DNA of 34,811 bases from Candidatus Raymondbacteria bacterium RIFOXYA2_FULL_49_16. GTDB taxonomy: Bacteria > Fibrobacterota > OXYB2-FULL-49-7 > XYB2-FULL-49-35. Below the pieces are notes generated by a model, which had not been told where the DNA came from, ran no database searches, and saw only the letters and a list, made by a program, of their open reading frames with translations. The stretch is from contig MFYT01000076.1 in the NCBI GenBank assembly GCA_001789205.1, forward strand, positions 1 to 34,811. Reading direction: 5' to 3'. Below, piece after piece: positions 24,388 through 32,069 of this stretch. The first letter of the stretch is position 1. Each line of letters opens with the position of its first letter. The translations under genes and the position numbers were made by a program.

Positions 24388-25194
24388 ATGAAAATATTTT
24401 TAATAATTATCAGCGCTCTTAATCTTGCTTTCTCGATGACTGCTCTCAGTCTTTTTCCGGCCTCAAATGAAGTTACAGGCTGGGATGCGGATATGCTTCC
24501 AGGCTGCATACAAGGCACAGCGTTTGATTCCGCCTCTTTGTATTCAAAGATTGATGGTGGTGCGGAGGAATATACTGATAGGGGGATGGTCGATGCGGCT
24601 TTTGGAGGATATTCTGATGGTGTGCTGAAATTGTGTATTGAGATTTATAACCAAACCACCGAGGCGAATGCTAAGGCTTTGTACGCTTTTTTTGGGGCCG
24701 GAGAATATCGGACGTATCCAAATATCGGTGACAGCGCTCGGATCGATACATCATTACCGTTCGATCTTGTACTCGAATGCATCCAGGATTCATTTTTCTG
24801 CAGGATCAGAATTGGGTATATTTCTCCAGAGTACGAGGCAGTTGCATTGGATTTTGCGCAAACCATAATGGCGCATGCCATAAGCGTTGAGCAAGGGTTG
24901 ACTGTTAAAAGAGATGCTATCCAGCTATTATCGTGTTTTCCCGATCCGGTAATACATGGATGCGTGTTCACTGCGCAGGCGAGAGGAGAACAATTCGCAC
25001 CAATACCTCTCTTGAAAATTTATAATTGTTCCGGCCAGTTGGTAAGCCAGCTTTCAGGTTCATTGAACAGGGGAGTTTATTCTTTCGTTTGGAAGGGCAA
25101 AGTTGGAGACGGGATGCGTCCGGCTCCTGGTATTTTTGTTGCAACAATACAGATTGGCGGTCAGCGCTTAATCAAGCGGTTTGTGCTCAAGTAA
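24388..25194 (+). CDS. exported DUF6599-like protein with sorting-type tail
   Basis: A 268-residue exported protein with a short signal peptide (about 1-18). Residues about 20-165 resemble DUF6599 (SLFPASNEVTGWD, LYSKIDGGAEEYTDRG, AFGGY). They are clearly paralogous to the protein at 28819-29307 in this window. Residues about 178-268 form a sorting-type or FlgD-like Ig tail (FPDPVIHGC, GVYSFVWKG, PGIFVATIQ, ending LIKRFVLK), a divergent relative of the T9SS tails nearby. Function is unknown; the family is found in exported proteins. Only a weak GGA precedes the start. It ends six bases from the convergent DUF362 gene. Family assignment is by motif recognition and is moderate. Confidence 0.75.
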   Translation: MKIFLIIISALNLAFSMTALSLFPASNEVTGWDADMLPGCIQGTAFDSASLYSKIDGGAEEYTDRGMVDAAFGGYSDGVLKLCIEIYNQTTEANAKALYAFFGAGEYRTYPNIGDSARIDTSLPFDLVLECIQDSFFCRIRIGYISPEYEAVALDFAQTIMAHAISVEQGLTVKRDAIQLLSCFPDPVIHGCVFTAQARGEQFAPIPLLKIYNCSGQLVSQLSGSLNRGVYSFVWKGKVGDGMRPAPGIFVATIQIGGQRLIKRFVLK

Positions 25195-25200
25195 TGCTAC

Positions 25201-26670
25201 CTAAATCAGTGTAATCGTATTACTCAGGATTTTCGTTCCCAGGTTGACGCTAACAACATAGCGGCCTGGAACCGCCCGCTTGCCGCGTGAATTGACCCCG
25301 GTCCATACGACCCGGTTGTTTATCCCAAGTATAGAAACTTCTTTACGCCAGATGATTTGACCTTTAATATCAGAGATTTCGACCACTGCCTGTTTTTGAT
25401 GGCTGTTTTGGGGTGCCAGGAAGTCGATATAGGCGTTTGGCGAAACGGGATTTGGATTTACCTGCATGGCGGCCTTTTCTTTCGAAGCGCTTGAGCTAAA
25501 CTTTTCACTTCCTGAATTTGTGATGACGCCGTTGATTATCTCACGATAATCCATATCTGCTTCGTCGATAATTCCAATATTATAGGGTGACGCACTCAGG
25601 CTGCTTGTTTTGCCAGCAGATGCTCTGAGATAATTAGGCATATCAGAAACATTATAGGTCTGGTTAAACTGCAATTTTCGCACTTTTACGCCGTGAAATT
25701 CGGCCGTGACCGGATCAGTACTCATAATTACGGTGTTCGGCCTGGTATCAGCAGTTGCTGGGTCTTTTGTCTGGGCATATATGAGAAAAGAATTAGCAGA
25801 AGCACTGGGTGAGGAGCCATAATGCCCATAAATGCTACAGAACGCAGTAAGAACTGTCTTGTTGTATACAGGTCCCACGCAATTGATGTCCCTGAGATAT
25901 GCGGGACAGCTGCTCGGGTCGGCAAAGGGATCGCCGGTCGAGTGGAAGTCTGTAGGGTAAGTGCCGTAATGGCTTTTAAATCCCATGGTATAGGATTCGG
26001 CATAAGTGCTATGACCGCGCAACGTGGGAATGTTTATCAGAAAATCACAATTATACAGCGTGTTAGAATATGGCCGATTACGCGCCCCAGCATCGTCTCC
26101 AGTACGGGTTGTCTGGCTGTCACTGGGAACCAGATTAACGTCTGGAAAATTTGTTGAGGTAAATCCTTTATTGGCCCAATCCGCACTTGCGTTTCCATCG
26201 TAAATATAAATACGATTTGCTGGAAAGTTGCCGCCAGGCAGGGACATTAGTTTTAGACCCTCAACAATTCCTTTGACTAGGAATGGATGTGGAGGAATTG
26301 TGGTGTCGGTCAGAATATTTATTTTAATGGCGATACGGCTGGTGACGCTCAGTGTTGCAGGAAAAATTGCTTTCCATGCTTCGCCAACATCCTGTATGCC
26401 GGTTAACAGCCTAATTGAATTGTCTATCATAGCCATCATTGTTGTTTCATCGGACAAAGTACCCCCGGTTTGATTGCAGGTTGGGTGTGGGTTGATTCTG
26501 TTTTCGTAGTTGAGTACCACTCTGCCAGGCCAGATGTTCAGCGGACTGGGGCTTGCCGGAACTTCTTTTGATGAAAGGCCAACAATTGCAGGAACAAGCG
26601 TAGAGGCCGCTGTTGCTGAGGCGCCGGTTTTTAAAAACGACCTTCGTGAGATTTTACCAGGACATTTCAT
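25201..26670 (-). CDS. Tat-exported DUF362 protein with T9SS-type sorting tail
   Basis: A 489-residue protein. The N-terminus has a twin-arginine signal (SRRSFLK, Arg9-Arg10) and an Ala/Thr-rich hydrophobic stretch to about residue 38, so it is predicted to be folded before export, possibly with a cofactor. Residues about 95-370 resemble the DUF362 domain (IAIKINILTD, PHPFLVKGIVEGL, CDFLINIPTLRGH, MGFKSHYGTYP). The extra ferredoxin domain seen in some DUF362 proteins is missing. Residues 403-489 form a sorting/FlgD-Ig-like tail (NPNPVSPNAYIDF ... GTKILSNTITLI) whose last residues lack the usual Lys/Arg. GGAG lies upstream of the start. The cofactor and reaction are unknown. Confidence 0.82.
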   Translation of the reverse strand: MKCPGKISRRSFLKTGASATAASTLVPAIVGLSSKEVPASPSPLNIWPGRVVLNYENRINPHPTCNQTGGTLSDETTMMAMIDNSIRLLTGIQDVGEAWKAIFPATLSVTSRIAIKINILTDTTIPPHPFLVKGIVEGLKLMSLPGGNFPANRIYIYDGNASADWANKGFTSTNFPDVNLVPSDSQTTRTGDDAGARNRPYSNTLYNCDFLINIPTLRGHSTYAESYTMGFKSHYGTYPTDFHSTGDPFADPSSCPAYLRDINCVGPVYNKTVLTAFCSIYGHYGSSPSASANSFLIYAQTKDPATADTRPNTVIMSTDPVTAEFHGVKVRKLQFNQTYNVSDMPNYLRASAGKTSSLSASPYNIGIIDEADMDYREIINGVITNSGSEKFSSSASKEKAAMQVNPNPVSPNAYIDFLAPQNSHQKQAVVEISDIKGQIIWRKEVSILGINNRVVWTGVNSRGKRAVPGRYVVSVNLGTKILSNTITLI

Positions 26671-27742: not shown

Positions 27743-28759
27743 TCATCCGTCCATGTAGATGCGGTTTTTCCCCAATTTTTTTGCGTAATAGAGATTGTGA
27801 TCAGCCTTGTTGATCAGGTCCATCAGTTGCTTCTCTACAGGCGTATCTATTTCTTTGCACGCAATGCCGATGCTGAGCGAAACCTCGATGCCCACGGGCA
27901 TTTTCTCTTTTGCAGCCGTATGGATTTTCCCCATGATCTCTATTACGCTTTTCCGGTCAATCTCGGGAAAAAAGAAAATAAATTCATCGCCCCCGTACCG
28001 GCCCACGATATCGGACGCCCGAGTATGTTTCATGAATGCCCTGCCGGCTGTTTCAAGCACTTTATCGCCTTTCTGGTGGCCGTGGGTATCATTTATAAAC
28101 TTGAAATTATCAATGTCCACCATGGCAACGCCCACCATGTAACGGTTGCGCTGGGCAAGATAGGCAAGGGGGACCACGGTGTTAAAAAAACTTTTCCGGT
28201 TGAAAACGCCGGTGAGTTTGTCCATGGTGCTTTCGCGCACGAGTTCGCTGTTCCGTTCGCGCATGGCGTTTATGGCCTCGTCCAATAGCAGGAGCGGCGG
28301 GTTGTCCTGAATGAAAGGGCGCACTTTATCGGTAAAAGTCCGGACATGCATTTCATAGTCGACCGCGGGTCTGGGCGCCCCGTCAAACGATGGGGCCATG
28401 AAGTTGAAGAGGCGTTCGAGTACCGGATATAACAGGTAGAATTCGAGGCGGTAGGCAAGGACAATGCTGTCAATATCGGCGGAGCTGGCTTTGTACTTCT
28501 GGTACATTGCGGCGGCTTTTTTCTCAATTGACGTAAGATCGTCGATTATTTTATCACGGTCATCAAAGAGCATGGGAACCATGCCGTTGTCCGCCAATTC
28601 AAGAAGATGCTTCCAGTAGCTTACATGTATTTGTTCATCTTTTCGCATCTGGTCCCATATTTCCCGGAGACGCGGGTCCGCAGCGCTGTCGTACAGTGAC
28701 GAGTATACAAGGACCGCGAGGCGGTCCAGTTCGAGACATTTTTCAATTATGGCCTTCAT
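27743..28759 (-). CDS. diguanylate cyclase with ferritin-like N-terminal domain
   Basis: A 338-residue cytoplasmic protein. Residues about 178-338 form a GGDEF domain that makes c-di-GMP from two GTP. The signature GGDEF is exact (256-260), DKLTGVFNRKSF starts it, and the RxxD inhibitory site (Arg247-Asp250) lies five residues upstream as in feedback-inhibited enzymes. Residues about 1-125 form a predominantly helical domain with rubrerythrin/ferritin-like spacing: Glu10 (helix 1), Glu42-x2-His45 (DEQIHVSYW, helix 2), Glu79 (helix 3) and Glu106 (helix 4). A second ExxH is missing, so the metal site, if real, is not a standard rubrerythrin one. An oxygen, iron or redox sensing role is an inference. 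It is transcribed away from a DUF6599-like gene. Confidence 0.88.
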   Translation of the reverse strand: MKAIIEKCLELDRLAVLVYSSLYDSAADPRLREIWDQMRKDEQIHVSYWKHLLELADNGMVPMLFDDRDKIIDDLTSIEKKAAAMYQKYKASSADIDSIVLAYRLEFYLLYPVLERLFNFMAPSFDGAPRPAVDYEMHVRTFTDKVRPFIQDNPPLLLLDEAINAMRERNSELVRESTMDKLTGVFNRKSFFNTVVPLAYLAQRNRYMVGVAMVDIDNFKFINDTHGHQKGDKVLETAGRAFMKHTRASDIVGRYGGDEFIFFFPEIDRKSVIEIMGKIHTAAKEKMPVGIEVSLSIGIACKEIDTPVEKQLMDLINKADHNLYYAKKLGKNRIYMDG

Positions 28760-28818: not shown

Positions 28819-29307
28819 ATGATTAGAACCATGGTCCTGTGCGTACTTCCGGTCTTTTGCTTGAACGCGGTAGATCTGCTGCCGATTCCGGACAGCGTCC
28901 CTGGTTTGGACAGAAACGCAAAAACAGGGTGCGTGAACGGCACGGTTTCGTTTGCCGCTGATTTGTACAAGGCCATAGATGGCGGCGCTGAAGTGTATAT
29001 AGACAATGGATTTTGCGCAGGCGCCTTTGGCGGGTATCTTTTAAATGGCCAGGAAACCTGTATTGAAATATACGATCAGGGAAGTGCGAAAAACGCGCGC
29101 ATTGTGTACGATTCAACCACTACAGGGGAGTATAGGTTCCTGAAAGTACCGCTCATATGTTCACGTATAGATACTTCAAGCCCTTTTGCGACCATTTTTG
29201 AAGGCGTCCACGACCGGTTTTTCATCAGGCTCTCCCGGAACGCGCGTGACACGGTTTCAGAAAACATGCTTGTCCGCATTGCGCGGGAAATTTCCAAGAA
29301 AAAATAG
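28819..29307 (+). CDS. exported DUF6599-like protein (paralogue, no sorting tail)
   Basis: A 162-residue protein with a hydrophobic N-terminus (MIRTMVLCVLPVFCLNA), probably a signal peptide. The mature part resembles the DUF6599-like domain of the 24388-25194 gene: LLPIPDSVPGLD, LYKAIDGGAEVYIDNGF, AFGGY, CIEIYDQGSAKNAR, TTGEYR and ICSRIDTSSPF correspond segment by segment. Unlike that gene it stops after the domain (ISKKK) and has no sorting-type tail, so the two paralogues probably end up in different places. The start at 28819 is chosen for the signal peptide; a longer upstream frame from 28696 runs antisense through the cyclase gene and is unlikely. Function unknown. Confidence 0.72.
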   Translation: MIRTMVLCVLPVFCLNAVDLLPIPDSVPGLDRNAKTGCVNGTVSFAADLYKAIDGGAEVYIDNGFCAGAFGGYLLNGQETCIEIYDQGSAKNARIVYDSTTTGEYRFLKVPLICSRIDTSSPFATIFEGVHDRFFIRLSRNARDTVSENMLVRIAREISKKK

Positions 29308-29313
29308 CGGCGT

Positions 29314-30078
29314 TTAAAATACCGCAGGAATATGGTCCTGGTATTCGACAATAGCGCTGTTTTCATCAACAACGCCGTCGTGACAAGCATTGCATTGGGT
29401 CATGCCGTAACCATGGCTGTTGGTTTGCGTATTGTGGCACGACTGGCAGGTGAAAGTACTGTCCCACGCTGCTGATGCGTTCCAGGCAATATCCTCCATA
29501 TCAGATTCCTCGGGCAGATGGCATCCGATATTGGTGCAGGTCCGGTTTTGGAAGCTCATTCCCTGGGCGGAAACCGTGAGTCCGCCATTATTGTGGCCCA
29601 ATGCGGCAATGCCTGTATGGCAGGTGGCGCAGGCAATATGGTATGAGGCGCTGTCCACATGTTTTTGGTGTGCGCCCATGGAAAAGGCCGGGTTGTCGTG
29701 ACAGTCCGCGCATTGTTTTGATGCATTCCATCTCCAGACCATTGGCGCGTTAACCTTGGCTGCCCGTTTTTCAGCGTCAGCGTGGCAGGCGACATTCGTA
29801 CATGTTCCATTCGTGTAGGTTCCGCTGAACGTGAGGTCGACCGTGCCATTGTTGTGCACTGTGTCAGCTCCTTTGCCAGGTTCGGGGTGGCAGCTGTCGC
29901 AGGTCAGATTGATCCCTTCCGCAAGATGTATCTGGTGGCTGCCGGAGACCGGATTTATCAAATGGCAGGCGGAGCATTCATCAAAGGCGCCTTGGTCTGA
30001 GGGCTGGCTGCATTGTACGAACGCCAGTAGCGCCGCGATGGCAGCAATGGCACAAAAAGTCTTGCCAAGACCTTTCAT
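29314..30078 (-). CDS. octahaem c-type cytochrome (CxxCH and CxxxxCH motifs), possible lipoprotein
   Basis: A 254-residue exported cytochrome. There are six CxxCH haem sites (Cys35, 60, 123, 150, 211, 229) and two CxxxxCH sites (CTNVACH at 93, CTNIGCH at 181). The alternation of CxxxxCH with a following CxxCH is the pattern of the Geobacter-type cytochrome domain. The signal ends at Cys23 (LAFVQC); a lipid anchor is possible, but Gln at -1 is unusual. It would carry electrons outside the inner membrane, perhaps at the outer face of the outer membrane. The start at 30078 follows AGGAG and overlaps the previous gene's stop as ATGA, so the two cytochromes are translationally coupled. Confidence 0.9.
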   Translation of the reverse strand: MKGLGKTFCAIAAIAALLAFVQCSQPSDQGAFDECSACHLINPVSGSHQIHLAEGINLTCDSCHPEPGKGADTVHNNGTVDLTFSGTYTNGTCTNVACHADAEKRAAKVNAPMVWRWNASKQCADCHDNPAFSMGAHQKHVDSASYHIACATCHTGIAALGHNNGGLTVSAQGMSFQNRTCTNIGCHLPEESDMEDIAWNASAAWDSTFTCQSCHNTQTNSHGYGMTQCNACHDGVVDENSAIVEYQDHIPAVF

Positions 30079-30794
30079 CGTATGGCTCCTTTTCTCTCGT
30101 GGCAGTCTGCGCAAAAGGCGGGAAGCGCGTGGCAGACAGAGCAATCGCTCTGCTTGAATTTTACGTCAATTCCATGTGTGTACCGGTAATCGGGCCTGTG
30201 GATTTTTTGTCCTGTTGCACCTGAATGGCATTCGGTGCAGTCAGCGGTCCGGTGGCACATGGCACATTCGTCTTTTTTAAATACAGCTTCTGCGCCATGC
30301 TCATCACGATGCATCCAGTTGGCTGTGGCATGGTCATCGGGTTTTTCAGCGGTCTGGTGGCAGAAAAGGCAATTTATTGTCCGCATTGCCTTGCGATGGC
30401 ATTGGAGGCACGCCTTCATGTTGGGCAATGTATTTTCAATTTTTTCTGTTTTTAACAGGGGACCGTGGCAGGCTGCGCAGTCCATGGAATGTTTCTGGTG
30501 CGTCTTGTGGCTGAATTTCAGGTTTTCGCCTTTTATCTTATGAGGTATGCGAAAACTATTGTCTTTCAGGGCAAAGGGTTTTTCGTCGCTGAACTTCATG
30601 TCCTCGTGGCATTGGCCGCATGTTTTTGTGTCCACTTCAGGGAGGGAATCCATCGAAGGTGATCCACCTATTTTATCATGGCAGGCGTCGCATGCAAGGC
30701 CCGCTGACTCAACATGCTGGCGATGGGAAAAAAACTGCGTGCTACCCAGGGCAAGGATGAAACTGACGCAAACAATGAAGCAGGCTGATTTCAT
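30075..30794 (-). CDS. nine-haem c-type cytochrome, probably periplasmic
   Basis: A 239-residue exported cytochrome with nine CxxCH motifs (first Cys at 35, 59, 106, 129, 142, 177, 186, 218 and 228) and many extra His (for example at 97, 100, 102, 162, 166) that can be axial ligands. The signal peptide covers about residues 1-19 (ends LGSTQ). The close motif packing resembles cytochrome c3/c7-like and Geobacter OmaB-type electron carriers. It begins seven bases after the barrel gene stop and overlaps the next cytochrome gene by four bases, so it is the middle gene of a three-gene operon. A role as the periplasmic partner that loads an outer-membrane conduit is inferred from context. Confidence 0.9.
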   Translation of the reverse strand: MKSACFIVCVSFILALGSTQFFSHRQHVESAGLACDACHDKIGGSPSMDSLPEVDTKTCGQCHEDMKFSDEKPFALKDNSFRIPHKIKGENLKFSHKTHQKHSMDCAACHGPLLKTEKIENTLPNMKACLQCHRKAMRTINCLFCHQTAEKPDDHATANWMHRDEHGAEAVFKKDECAMCHRTADCTECHSGATGQKIHRPDYRYTHGIDVKFKQSDCSVCHALPAFCADCHERKGAIR

Positions 30795-30800
30795 GGGTAT

Positions 30801-32069
30801 TTACCTGTTGAATCTGTACAAGAGGCCTGCGAAAAGCCGGTTGTCGTATTCGAAATATCGATTTTTGAGAAGCTGATACTCGCTGTTTATTGCCAGATTT
30901 TGGAACAACACATAGCTGGCGTTCAGGCTGGCGGTAAACGATGTGCGCCTGGTTTTCATAGTAGTGAGGGTATATTGGGTGAGGCCTGTTCCAGCAGCCA
31001 GATCAAGGTTTTTCAGGGGTGTCACCGCGTATGCGGCAAAGACATCGACCGCGCTGGCATTGTTTCCCATCTTCCGGGAAAGCGCAAGGGAGGCGTTTTT
31101 GTAACGGAAATCAAAGTCAAACGAGTGTTTTGCCGAATCAGCATAGAGCAGCACGCCATATTGGAACACAAAATCGATATTATCGTTCAAAAGAAAACGG
31201 CAGGCCGCGCTGCCAGACATGTGTTTGCCATTGACATAATATTCGTAATATCTTGTTGAGTCGATTTTTTGGTCCTGGAGGCCGCCGGCGAGCAGGAAGA
31301 TAGTACGTTGATAGAGTTTTATTGTGCCGTTTCCCGAGAGACTTGCGACGCCGTGTGTATTGAAATCGTACACGCTGGTCAATGAGATGCGTGCGGGCTT
31401 TAAATACTGGGAAGTGACCCCGGCCGCCACAGAGCCTTGGTCAGTATCGCCTTTTTTCAGTACATCAGCATGTAAAACGGTTTTTGCCAATCCTGAAAAT
31501 TGTATGGTTCCGCCATACGAAGGGCCAACATCGCTGTTGAACAGGGCCTTTTCATAGGGCGTTGGCATGGAAAGGCCTCCGAACGCCGTAAGAGAAAAAA
31601 GCCCCTCTTTCTGGAAGGTGATTGCGCCACCATCGATGAAGATATTTCGCTCAATAAGGGGCGTGAATGTCCGTCCCGCAGAAAGGGACAACGGCAGATT
31701 TGGCGCGGCCCAGGTAAGCGCAAGTGATGTGAGTCTGTGGAGGTTTTTATAACTGTTTGGCCGGGCATTGGGGGTTTCTGAATACCGGTAGGCAAGGTCG
31801 AAAGTGAATGGTCCGTTATCGGCAGATATGATGGCTGTCGCATAGGGGAGGACATGCTCAAACACAAGGGGAGCATTTGCATTGTCATCATTCTCTTCTT
31901 CGTTGTCTTCAGCGCCTCCTGTTGGGGTCTGCTGGCTTGCCGACGTTATTGCGTCTCGTGTATTTACCGCCTCACCGCCAATGGAGAACAGGCCATGAAT
32001 GCCTTTTGCGTGCAGGAAAACCAGGAGGCCTGAAAGCAGGAGGCAGGCGGCAACAAGAGAATACTTCAT
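30801..32069 (-). CDS. predicted outer-membrane beta-barrel, porin part of a cytochrome conduit
   Basis: A 422-residue exported protein with a signal peptide (about 1-21, ending FLHA). From about residue 70 to the end it alternates hydrophobic and polar residues with frequent Tyr/Phe and Gly turns (for example FTFDLAYRY, SLSAGRTF, VDVFAAYAV, LAINSEYQL). It ends with aromatic-rich LFAGLLYRFNR, typical of barrels. A low-complexity acidic loop (EDNEEENDDNAN, about 54-65) follows the signal. I recognise no named family by motif. Two multihaem cytochromes directly downstream make it the likely sheath of a porin-cytochrome complex, comparable in size to the Geobacter OmbB barrel. Its ribosome site is weak (AGGAA close to ATG). 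Confidence 0.78.
   Translation of the reverse strand: MKYSLVAACLLLSGLLVFLHAKGIHGLFSIGGEAVNTRDAITSASQQTPTGGAEDNEEENDDNANAPLVFEHVLPYATAIISADNGPFTFDLAYRYSETPNARPNSYKNLHRLTSLALTWAAPNLPLSLSAGRTFTPLIERNIFIDGGAITFQKEGLFSLTAFGGLSMPTPYEKALFNSDVGPSYGGTIQFSGLAKTVLHADVLKKGDTDQGSVAAGVTSQYLKPARISLTSVYDFNTHGVASLSGNGTIKLYQRTIFLLAGGLQDQKIDSTRYYEYYVNGKHMSGSAACRFLLNDNIDFVFQYGVLLYADSAKHSFDFDFRYKNASLALSRKMGNNASAVDVFAAYAVTPLKNLDLAAGTGLTQYTLTTMKTRRTSFTASLNASYVLFQNLAINSEYQLLKNRYFEYDNRLFAGLLYRFNR

What the first reader, a model, noticed from the sequence alone, without database searches (positions are those of the whole stretch)
29314..32069. Compact barrel plus nine-haem plus eight-haem operon: candidate porin-cytochrome electron conduit
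Seen: three co-directional genes with 6- and -4-base spacing. They encode a predicted outer-membrane barrel (422 aa), a nine-CxxCH cytochrome (239 aa) and a cytochrome with six CxxCH plus two CxxxxCH motifs (254 aa) that may be lipid-anchored. Known: Geobacter OmbB-OmaB-OmcB and Shewanella MtrCAB pair a barrel with periplasmic and surface multihaem cytochromes to export electrons. Inference: this is a small, diverged porin-cytochrome complex in a T9SS-bearing lineage, where such conduits are not well described. The proteins are small for the class and the lipobox is atypical.
Basis: partly seen in the sequence, partly recalled or inferred. Interest (0 to 1): 0.8.

Follow-up and report, generated by a model that had tools for sequence, protein, structure and literature searches.

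The report
Outer-membrane electron conduit in a Fibrobacterota genome
Three adjacent genes encode a pore and two haem-rich proteins that very probably form a wire carrying electrons across the outer membrane, a known kind of device found here in a bacterial phylum thought to live mainly by fermentation and, in relatives, joined to several different electron sources.

Summary
The genes lie on the minus strand: barrel 32069-30801, nonahaem cytochrome 30794-30075, and a CxxCH/CxxxxCH lipoprotein cytochrome 30078-29314. The genome belongs to the phylum Fibrobacterota.

The same three genes, in the same order, occur at 14 loci in 13 of 168 Fibrobacterota genomes (9 genera, 6 families), although the barrels share only about 15-30% identity. 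The third protein's lipobox cysteine is invariant in eight aligned copies. The same layout occurs in Ignavibacteria/Bacteroidota with a 400-aa, 14-haem cytochrome, matching the published Ignavibacterium album porin-cytochrome cluster. The barrel model has 21 strands, within the Pcc range.

I therefore call it a porin-cytochrome (Pcc-type) conduit, a new member of a known kind, not Mtr/Pio. Its size is normal for Pcc.

More interesting are the neighbours. In relatives the trio sits beside a Qrc/ACIII-like complex, a NiFe hydrogenase, an Rnf operon or a multihaem-cytochrome b, suggesting a swappable outlet. In the window genome the trio stands alone. Rnf with a tetrahaem cytochrome, and a cytochrome b-multihaem protein, lie on other contigs.

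Electron transfer, direction and partners are inferred.

The parts
30801..32069 (-). Outer-membrane beta-barrel (porin component), 422 aa: signal peptide about residues 1-22, acidic N-terminal stretch about 40-70, predicted 21 strands over residues 77-418
   Evidence: profile matched in 14 of 168 phylum genomes; no Pfam, NCBIfam or PDB-sequence match
31629..31676 (-). Conserved barrel signature GR-x(12)-DG (residues 132-147)
   Evidence: present in 26 of 27 conduit barrels by script; the 27th, L016, is truncated and has it too by eye; background 24 of 154 ORFs, shuffles 16%
30075..30794 (-). Nonahaem c-type cytochrome (periplasmic / barrel-inserted component), 239 aa, c7-like chain of nine CxxCH
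   Evidence: all nine motifs invariant in 8 homologues
29314..30078 (-). Octahaem CxxCH/CxxxxCH cytochrome, predicted outer-membrane lipoprotein, 254 aa
   Evidence: (TIGR01904 over cut-off)
30010..30012 (-). Codon of the lipobox cysteine C23 (F-V-Q-C, atypical at -1 and -3)
   Evidence: aligned with the lipobox cysteine in all 8 homologues

Best explanation
The three genes encode a porin-cytochrome (Pcc-type) electron conduit across the outer membrane. The barrel is a sleeve, the nonahaem cytochrome is the wire that sits in or at the periplasmic mouth of the sleeve, and the octahaem lipoprotein is the outer-face cytochrome that passes electrons to an extracellular acceptor (a mineral, humic matter or a partner cell). 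In this genome the most likely feeders are a multihaem-cytochrome b quinol oxidoreductase (contig C64) and/or an Rnf complex with its tetrahaem cytochrome (contig C96). Shown: gene order, haem motifs, conservation of the trio, and the barrel family. Inferred: assembly, haem insertion, outward direction, and feeders.
For: Trio conserved in order at 14 loci of 13 Fibrobacterota genomes, 9 genera and 6 families. Barrel and nonahaem hit sets overlap in 13 of 14 genomes each, out of 168 (hypergeometric P about 2e-17, not corrected for phylogeny); the barrel-only genome G092 breaks at a contig end. Outside the phylum, the twelve loci inspected (L045-L056), found by the nonahaem sequence alone, all have a barrel-like gene beside the cytochrome; the Fibrobacterota barrel profile matches eleven of them above threshold, strongly in Ignavibacteria/Bacteroidota (64-85 bits) and weakly in Myxococcota, Planctomycetota and others, with L051 just below threshold; hhalign 99.3%, 94.8% and 88.7%. 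Barrel model: 21 strands, the best Foldseek matches are membrane beta-barrels. Lipobox cysteine invariant. c-type cytochrome maturation (CcsB over cut-off) is present in the genome. Same architecture as the I. album cluster IALB_1839-1838-1837: porin, 400-aa 14-haem, outer-membrane cytochrome with atypical motifs (PMC4245776).
Against: No complex was modelled. The barrel model is only moderately confident (pLDDT 63.5, pTM 0.55), pore closure was not established, and the nonahaem model is unusable (pLDDT 47). No feeder gene is adjacent in the window, and G000 has few other multihaem genes. No experimental data were found for this organism or its Fibrobacterota relatives. The lipobox of P0001 is atypical.
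Confidence: 0.85

Rival explanations
1. The trio is a conduit that runs inward: it takes electrons from outside (Fe(II), a partner cell, an electrode) into the periplasm, as PioAB and MtoAB are known to do.
For: The same anatomy serves inward flow in known systems (PMC6148476). Hydrogenase neighbours in some relatives could evolve as well as take up H2.
Against: Neighbours in relatives are mostly modules that can release electrons to the periplasm (Qrc/ACIII-like, Rnf, cytochrome b). No cytochrome bd was found in G000 to receive incoming electrons; other oxidases were not searched.
Confidence: 0.2
2. The barrel is an ordinary transport porin that happens to share an operon with two periplasmic redox cytochromes; there is no trans-membrane wire.
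For: No curated family names the barrel. Foldseek gives generic barrels, with MtrB only rank 15 at TM-score 0.33.
Against: Barrel and cytochrome co-occur and stay adjacent across the phylum and beyond. The barrel profile search of 168 genomes gave conduit loci wherever the contig allowed a look.
Confidence: 0.07
3. The trio is a remnant or a contaminant contig without function.
For: The trio stands without feeder genes, and the genome has few other multihaem proteins.
Against: All frames are intact; GC of the trio is 51% and of the contig 50%; the nearest relatives are Fibrobacterota (tree); genome contamination is given as 0.63%.
Confidence: 0.03

Closest known systems
Ignavibacterium album pcc cluster IALB_1839-1838-1837 (PMC4245776)
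   Same: Porin, then periplasmic multihaem, then outer-membrane cytochrome with atypical CxnCH motifs. Ignavibacteria/Bacteroidota homologues found here (L046, L049) have a 401-402-aa, 14-CxxCH middle protein, matching the published 400 aa and 14 haems.
   Different: The window's cytochromes are shorter (9 and 8 motifs).
Geobacter OmbB-OmaB-OmcB and ExtABCD/ExtEFG conduits
   Same: Three-part logic: barrel with 18-22 segments (21 for ExtE and ExtI), periplasmic multihaem, outer-membrane lipoprotein cytochrome. extEFG also sits in a hydrogenase transcriptional unit (PMC6148476).
   Different: No curated family relates the barrel to them. OmcB has 12 haems, the window lipoprotein eight motifs.
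Shewanella MtrCAB / Rhodopseudomonas PioAB
   Same: Functional principle only.
   Different: MtrB/PioB have 28 predicted segments and MtrA/PioA ten haems (PMC4245776). P0003 has no MtrB_PioB match. The nonahaem profile does not retrieve the solved Mtr complex.
GSU1996-type dodecahaem 'nanowire' and c7 cytochromes
   Same: P0002 is built of c7-like haem modules (3ov0 E = 3e-26).
   Different: Those are carriers without a known barrel partner (own knowledge).

Membership tests
Porin-cytochrome complex (Pcc) gene cluster | Gene for a porin-like outer-membrane barrel | tested here: met
   Signal peptide, 21 predicted strands, barrel matches in PDB; moderate model confidence
Porin-cytochrome complex (Pcc) gene cluster | 18-22 predicted membrane segments in the barrel | tested here: met
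   21 strands in the model against 18-22 in PMC4245776
Porin-cytochrome complex (Pcc) gene cluster | Periplasmic c-type cytochrome with 5-14 haem motifs | tested here: met
   Nine CxxCH, signal-like N-terminus, no lipobox; localisation itself is inferred
Porin-cytochrome complex (Pcc) gene cluster | Outer-membrane (lipoprotein) multihaem cytochrome | tested here: met
   Eight motifs; lipobox cysteine invariant in 8 homologues; outer-membrane placement itself is inferred
Porin-cytochrome complex (Pcc) gene cluster | Genes contiguous and conserved together | tested here: met
   14 loci in 13 genomes, plus Ignavibacteria/Bacteroidota
Porin-cytochrome complex (Pcc) gene cluster | Sequence similarity to OmbB/OmaB/OmcB | not tested
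   No reference sequence of these was at hand; Ignavibacteria porins are called OmbB-like in PMC7399161, which is indirect support only
[quoted passage not shown]
   Needs biochemistry or electrochemistry
MtrAB / PioAB / MtoAB | MtrB_PioB barrel family, 28 segments | tested here: not met
   No match at E <= 1 in Pfam or NCBIfam; 21 strands
MtrAB / PioAB / MtoAB | Decahaem MtrA/DmsE-type partner | tested here: not met
   Nine motifs; TIGR03508 only 15.2 bits against a cut-off of 192
TIGR01904 / PF09698 CxxxxCH-CxxCH cytochromes | Score over the curated cut-off | tested here: met
   51.1 bits vs 27; 32.6 vs 21.7

The most novel reading that the evidence does not exclude
In Fibrobacterota one conserved outer-membrane conduit serves as a standard outlet that has been wired in turn to different electron sources: quinol (Qrc/ACIII-like, cytochrome b), H2 (NiFe hydrogenase) and reduced ferredoxin through an Rnf complex and a tetrahaem cytochrome. 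The Rnf version would be a bacterial operon that links ferredoxin oxidation and ion pumping directly to an outer-membrane electron outlet, so that polysaccharide fermenters dispose of electrons outside the cell.
Probability: 0.35. Interest if true: 0.75.

Novelty: new member of a known kind. Interest (0 to 1): 0.5.

Why it matters
[quoted passage not shown] A conserved conduit in 13 of 168 genomes suggests that some lineages of these polymer degraders can respire on external acceptors or feed partner cells. My literature searches found no report of such a conduit in this phylum, though the library is partial. The changing neighbours make the question 'what feeds an outer-membrane conduit' testable by comparison within one phylum.

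Tried and rejected
The first nonahaem profile was too diverse for pattern search; a three-sequence alignment worked. Nonahaem structure prediction failed (pLDDT 47) and was not used. Fold search of the barrel gave only generic barrels; MtrB at rank 15 is not taken as kinship. PDB sequence searches with the barrel and with its profile gave nothing. Hits of the lipoprotein profile to photosynthetic reaction-centre cytochromes are taken as haem-motif similarity only. I considered Mtr membership and rejected it. I considered contamination and rejected it (GC and tree). The window genome was not available as a file, so its other genes were sampled by family searches.

Full report
OBSERVATION. The three genes are present as described, all on the minus strand. 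The barrel (422 aa) is 32069-30801. Six bases later comes the nonahaem (239 aa, 30794-30075). Four bases of overlap lead into the third gene (254 aa, 30078-29314). Motif counts are nine CxxCH, and six CxxCH plus two CxxxxCH; shuffled P0002 yields 0.13 CxxCH on average. P0002 carries 20 histidines and P0001 17, enough for a distal ligand at each motif. The window is the whole contig C76 of a 5.43-Mb genome (G000; completeness 100, contamination 0.63).

LINEAGE. The phylum is therefore Fibrobacterota.

WHAT THE PROTEINS ARE. P0002 matches Cytochrome_C7 and c3 families, and its profile matches Geobacter GSU1996 (3ov0; identity of that entry from own knowledge) and the ActA-type cytochromes of alternative complex III in the PDB. 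P0001 is a TIGR01904/PF09698 CxxxxCH/CxxCH protein. P0003 has no Pfam, NCBIfam or PDB-sequence relative. Its AlphaFold2 model has 21 strands over residues 77-418 (mean pLDDT 63.5, pTM 0.55), and the best Foldseek matches are membrane beta-barrels such as ushers, OprD-like porins, MOMP, VDAC and MtrB. I read it as an outer-membrane barrel of about 21 strands. I did not establish that it closes, or that it can hold the cytochrome.

CONSERVATION. The barrel profile finds 14 of 168 phylum genomes and the nonahaem profile 14, with 13 in common (P about 2e-17 without phylogenetic correction). In each of those 13 genomes the order is barrel, 8-11-haem cytochrome, CxxxxCH lipoprotein cytochrome; G165 has two such sets. 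That makes 14 loci in 9 genera and 6 families. The exceptions are informative. In G092 the barrel is cut by a contig end. G001, the only same-order relative, has a diverged barrel (52 bits) between a 12-haem lipoprotein and a 7-haem cytochrome. All nine haem motifs of P0002 are invariant in eight homologues, and the lipobox cysteine of P0001 is invariant.

BEYOND THE PHYLUM. A search by nonahaem sequence alone returned loci of Ignavibacteria, Bacteroidetes, Kofleriaceae/Polyangiaceae, Planctomycetes, Gemmatimonadetes and other Deltaproteobacteria. The twelve inspected (L045-L056) have a barrel-like gene beside the cytochrome; L057 was not inspected. Among 1,340 ORFs from all loci, the Fibrobacterota barrel profile picks out these barrels: 64-85 bits in Ignavibacteria/Bacteroidota, 9-19 bits elsewhere, L051 falling below the inclusion threshold. 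Profile comparisons give 99.3%, 94.8% and 88.7%; the last two are suggestive, not proof, since barrels share general patterns. A GR-x(8-16)-DG signature occurs in 26 of 27 barrels by script, and by eye in the truncated 27th, against 16% in shuffles and 24 of 154 other ORFs. It may occur in other barrels too; I did not test that. In L046 and L049 the middle protein is 401-402 aa with 14 CxxCH and the third carries CxxxxCH motifs. This matches the published description of Ignavibacterium album IALB_1838 (400 aa, 14 haems) and IALB_1837 (atypical motifs) (PMC4245776). PMC7399161 calls Ignavibacteria porins OmbB-like.

NEIGHBOURS IN RELATIVES. (a) G028/G089: molybdopterin-type subunit and a pentahaem in both, with NrfD and a QrcC-like Fe-S protein tested in G028, plus a 6-haem lipoprotein and genes that look like cytochrome c biogenesis. 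(b) G007/G019 and G065: NiFe hydrogenase; large subunit over the NCBIfam cut-off in G019 and G065. (c) G045/G053/G081, one genus: a tetrahaem cytochrome and then rnfC, D, E, A and B; RnfA and RnfE are over cut-off in G081, RnfC below it; rnfG was not checked. (d) G055 and the Ignavibacteria/Bacteroidetes loci: multihaem-cytochrome b proteins. (e) G165: two conduits and a 22-CxxCH protein. These are neighbourhoods, not shown couplings.

THE WINDOW GENOME. It has one trio. Elsewhere it holds CcsB and a ResB-like gene, an Rnf operon headed by a tetrahaem cytochrome 36% identical to the one joined to the conduit in G045, and a multihaem-cytochrome b protein 45% identical to the one near the L046 conduit. 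NrfD and cytochrome bd were not found, and the NiFe hydrogenase match is a 440-aa ORF aligned only at its two ends. In the nonahaem tree the window sequence sits with G028, G089 and G165b, while the Rnf- and hydrogenase-linked copies form another group, with modest support. So the feeder in this genome is a guess: cytochrome b and Rnf are the two candidates.

MECHANISM. Electrons from a periplasmic donor enter the nonahaem wire, cross inside the barrel and leave by the surface lipoprotein. Steps supported by sequence: secretion signals, haem motifs, lipid anchor by homology, barrel fold, co-conservation. Steps inferred: haem loading, complex formation, surface exposure, outward direction, donor and acceptor.

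COMPARISON AND NOVELTY. It meets every tested defining feature of a Pcc cluster and fails those of Mtr/Pio. It is a new member of a known kind. Finding it in Fibrobacterota, and the variety of neighbours, is new as far as my literature searches reach. Rnf linked to a multihaem cytochrome is itself known, in Desulfovibrionaceae operons (PMC11434368) and in Methanosarcina (MmcA; PMC11024163, seen as abstract only, the Rnf link from own knowledge); what I did not find described is Rnf joined to an outer-membrane conduit.

Noticed in passing
window 27743-28759 (-): GGDEF protein (129.7 bits) with an intact GGDEF motif and a weak ferritin-like N-terminal match, about 550 bp from the trio; c-di-GMP affects extracellular electron transfer in Geobacter, so a regulatory link is conceivable.
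   Followed up: no
window 24388-25194 (+) and about 28828-29307 (+): Two paralogous predicted secreted proteins; the second, beside the trio, has a sub-threshold match to DUF6599.
   Followed up: no
window 25201-26670 (-): Tat-signal DUF362 protein with weak FlgD-Ig/Por_Secre_tail matches at its C-terminus.
   Followed up: no
L082:575-2470 (G000 contig C96): RnfB appears fused to a GltD-like NAD(P)-binding oxidoreductase module (631 aa) in the Rnf operon headed by a tetrahaem cytochrome.
   Followed up: partly
L039, L040, L041 (G045, G053, G081): Barrel, multihaem, lipoprotein cytochrome, tetrahaem cytochrome and rnf genes run in one direction with overlapping or nearly touching ends: a candidate Rnf-to-outer-membrane operon.
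   Followed up: yes
L037:1-10513 (G165): Two conduit sets side by side with a 1075-aa protein carrying 22 CxxCH motifs and response-regulator genes.
   Followed up: partly
L083:6977-10193 (G001): The same-order relative has a different barrel-cytochrome set: 12-haem lipoprotein, diverged barrel, 7-haem cytochrome.
   Followed up: partly
L079:6033-7295 (G000 contig C64): Multihaem-cytochrome b561-type protein; the frame extends upstream to one more CxxCH and a signal-like stretch, but the listed ORF starts later, so the true start needs care.
   Followed up: partly
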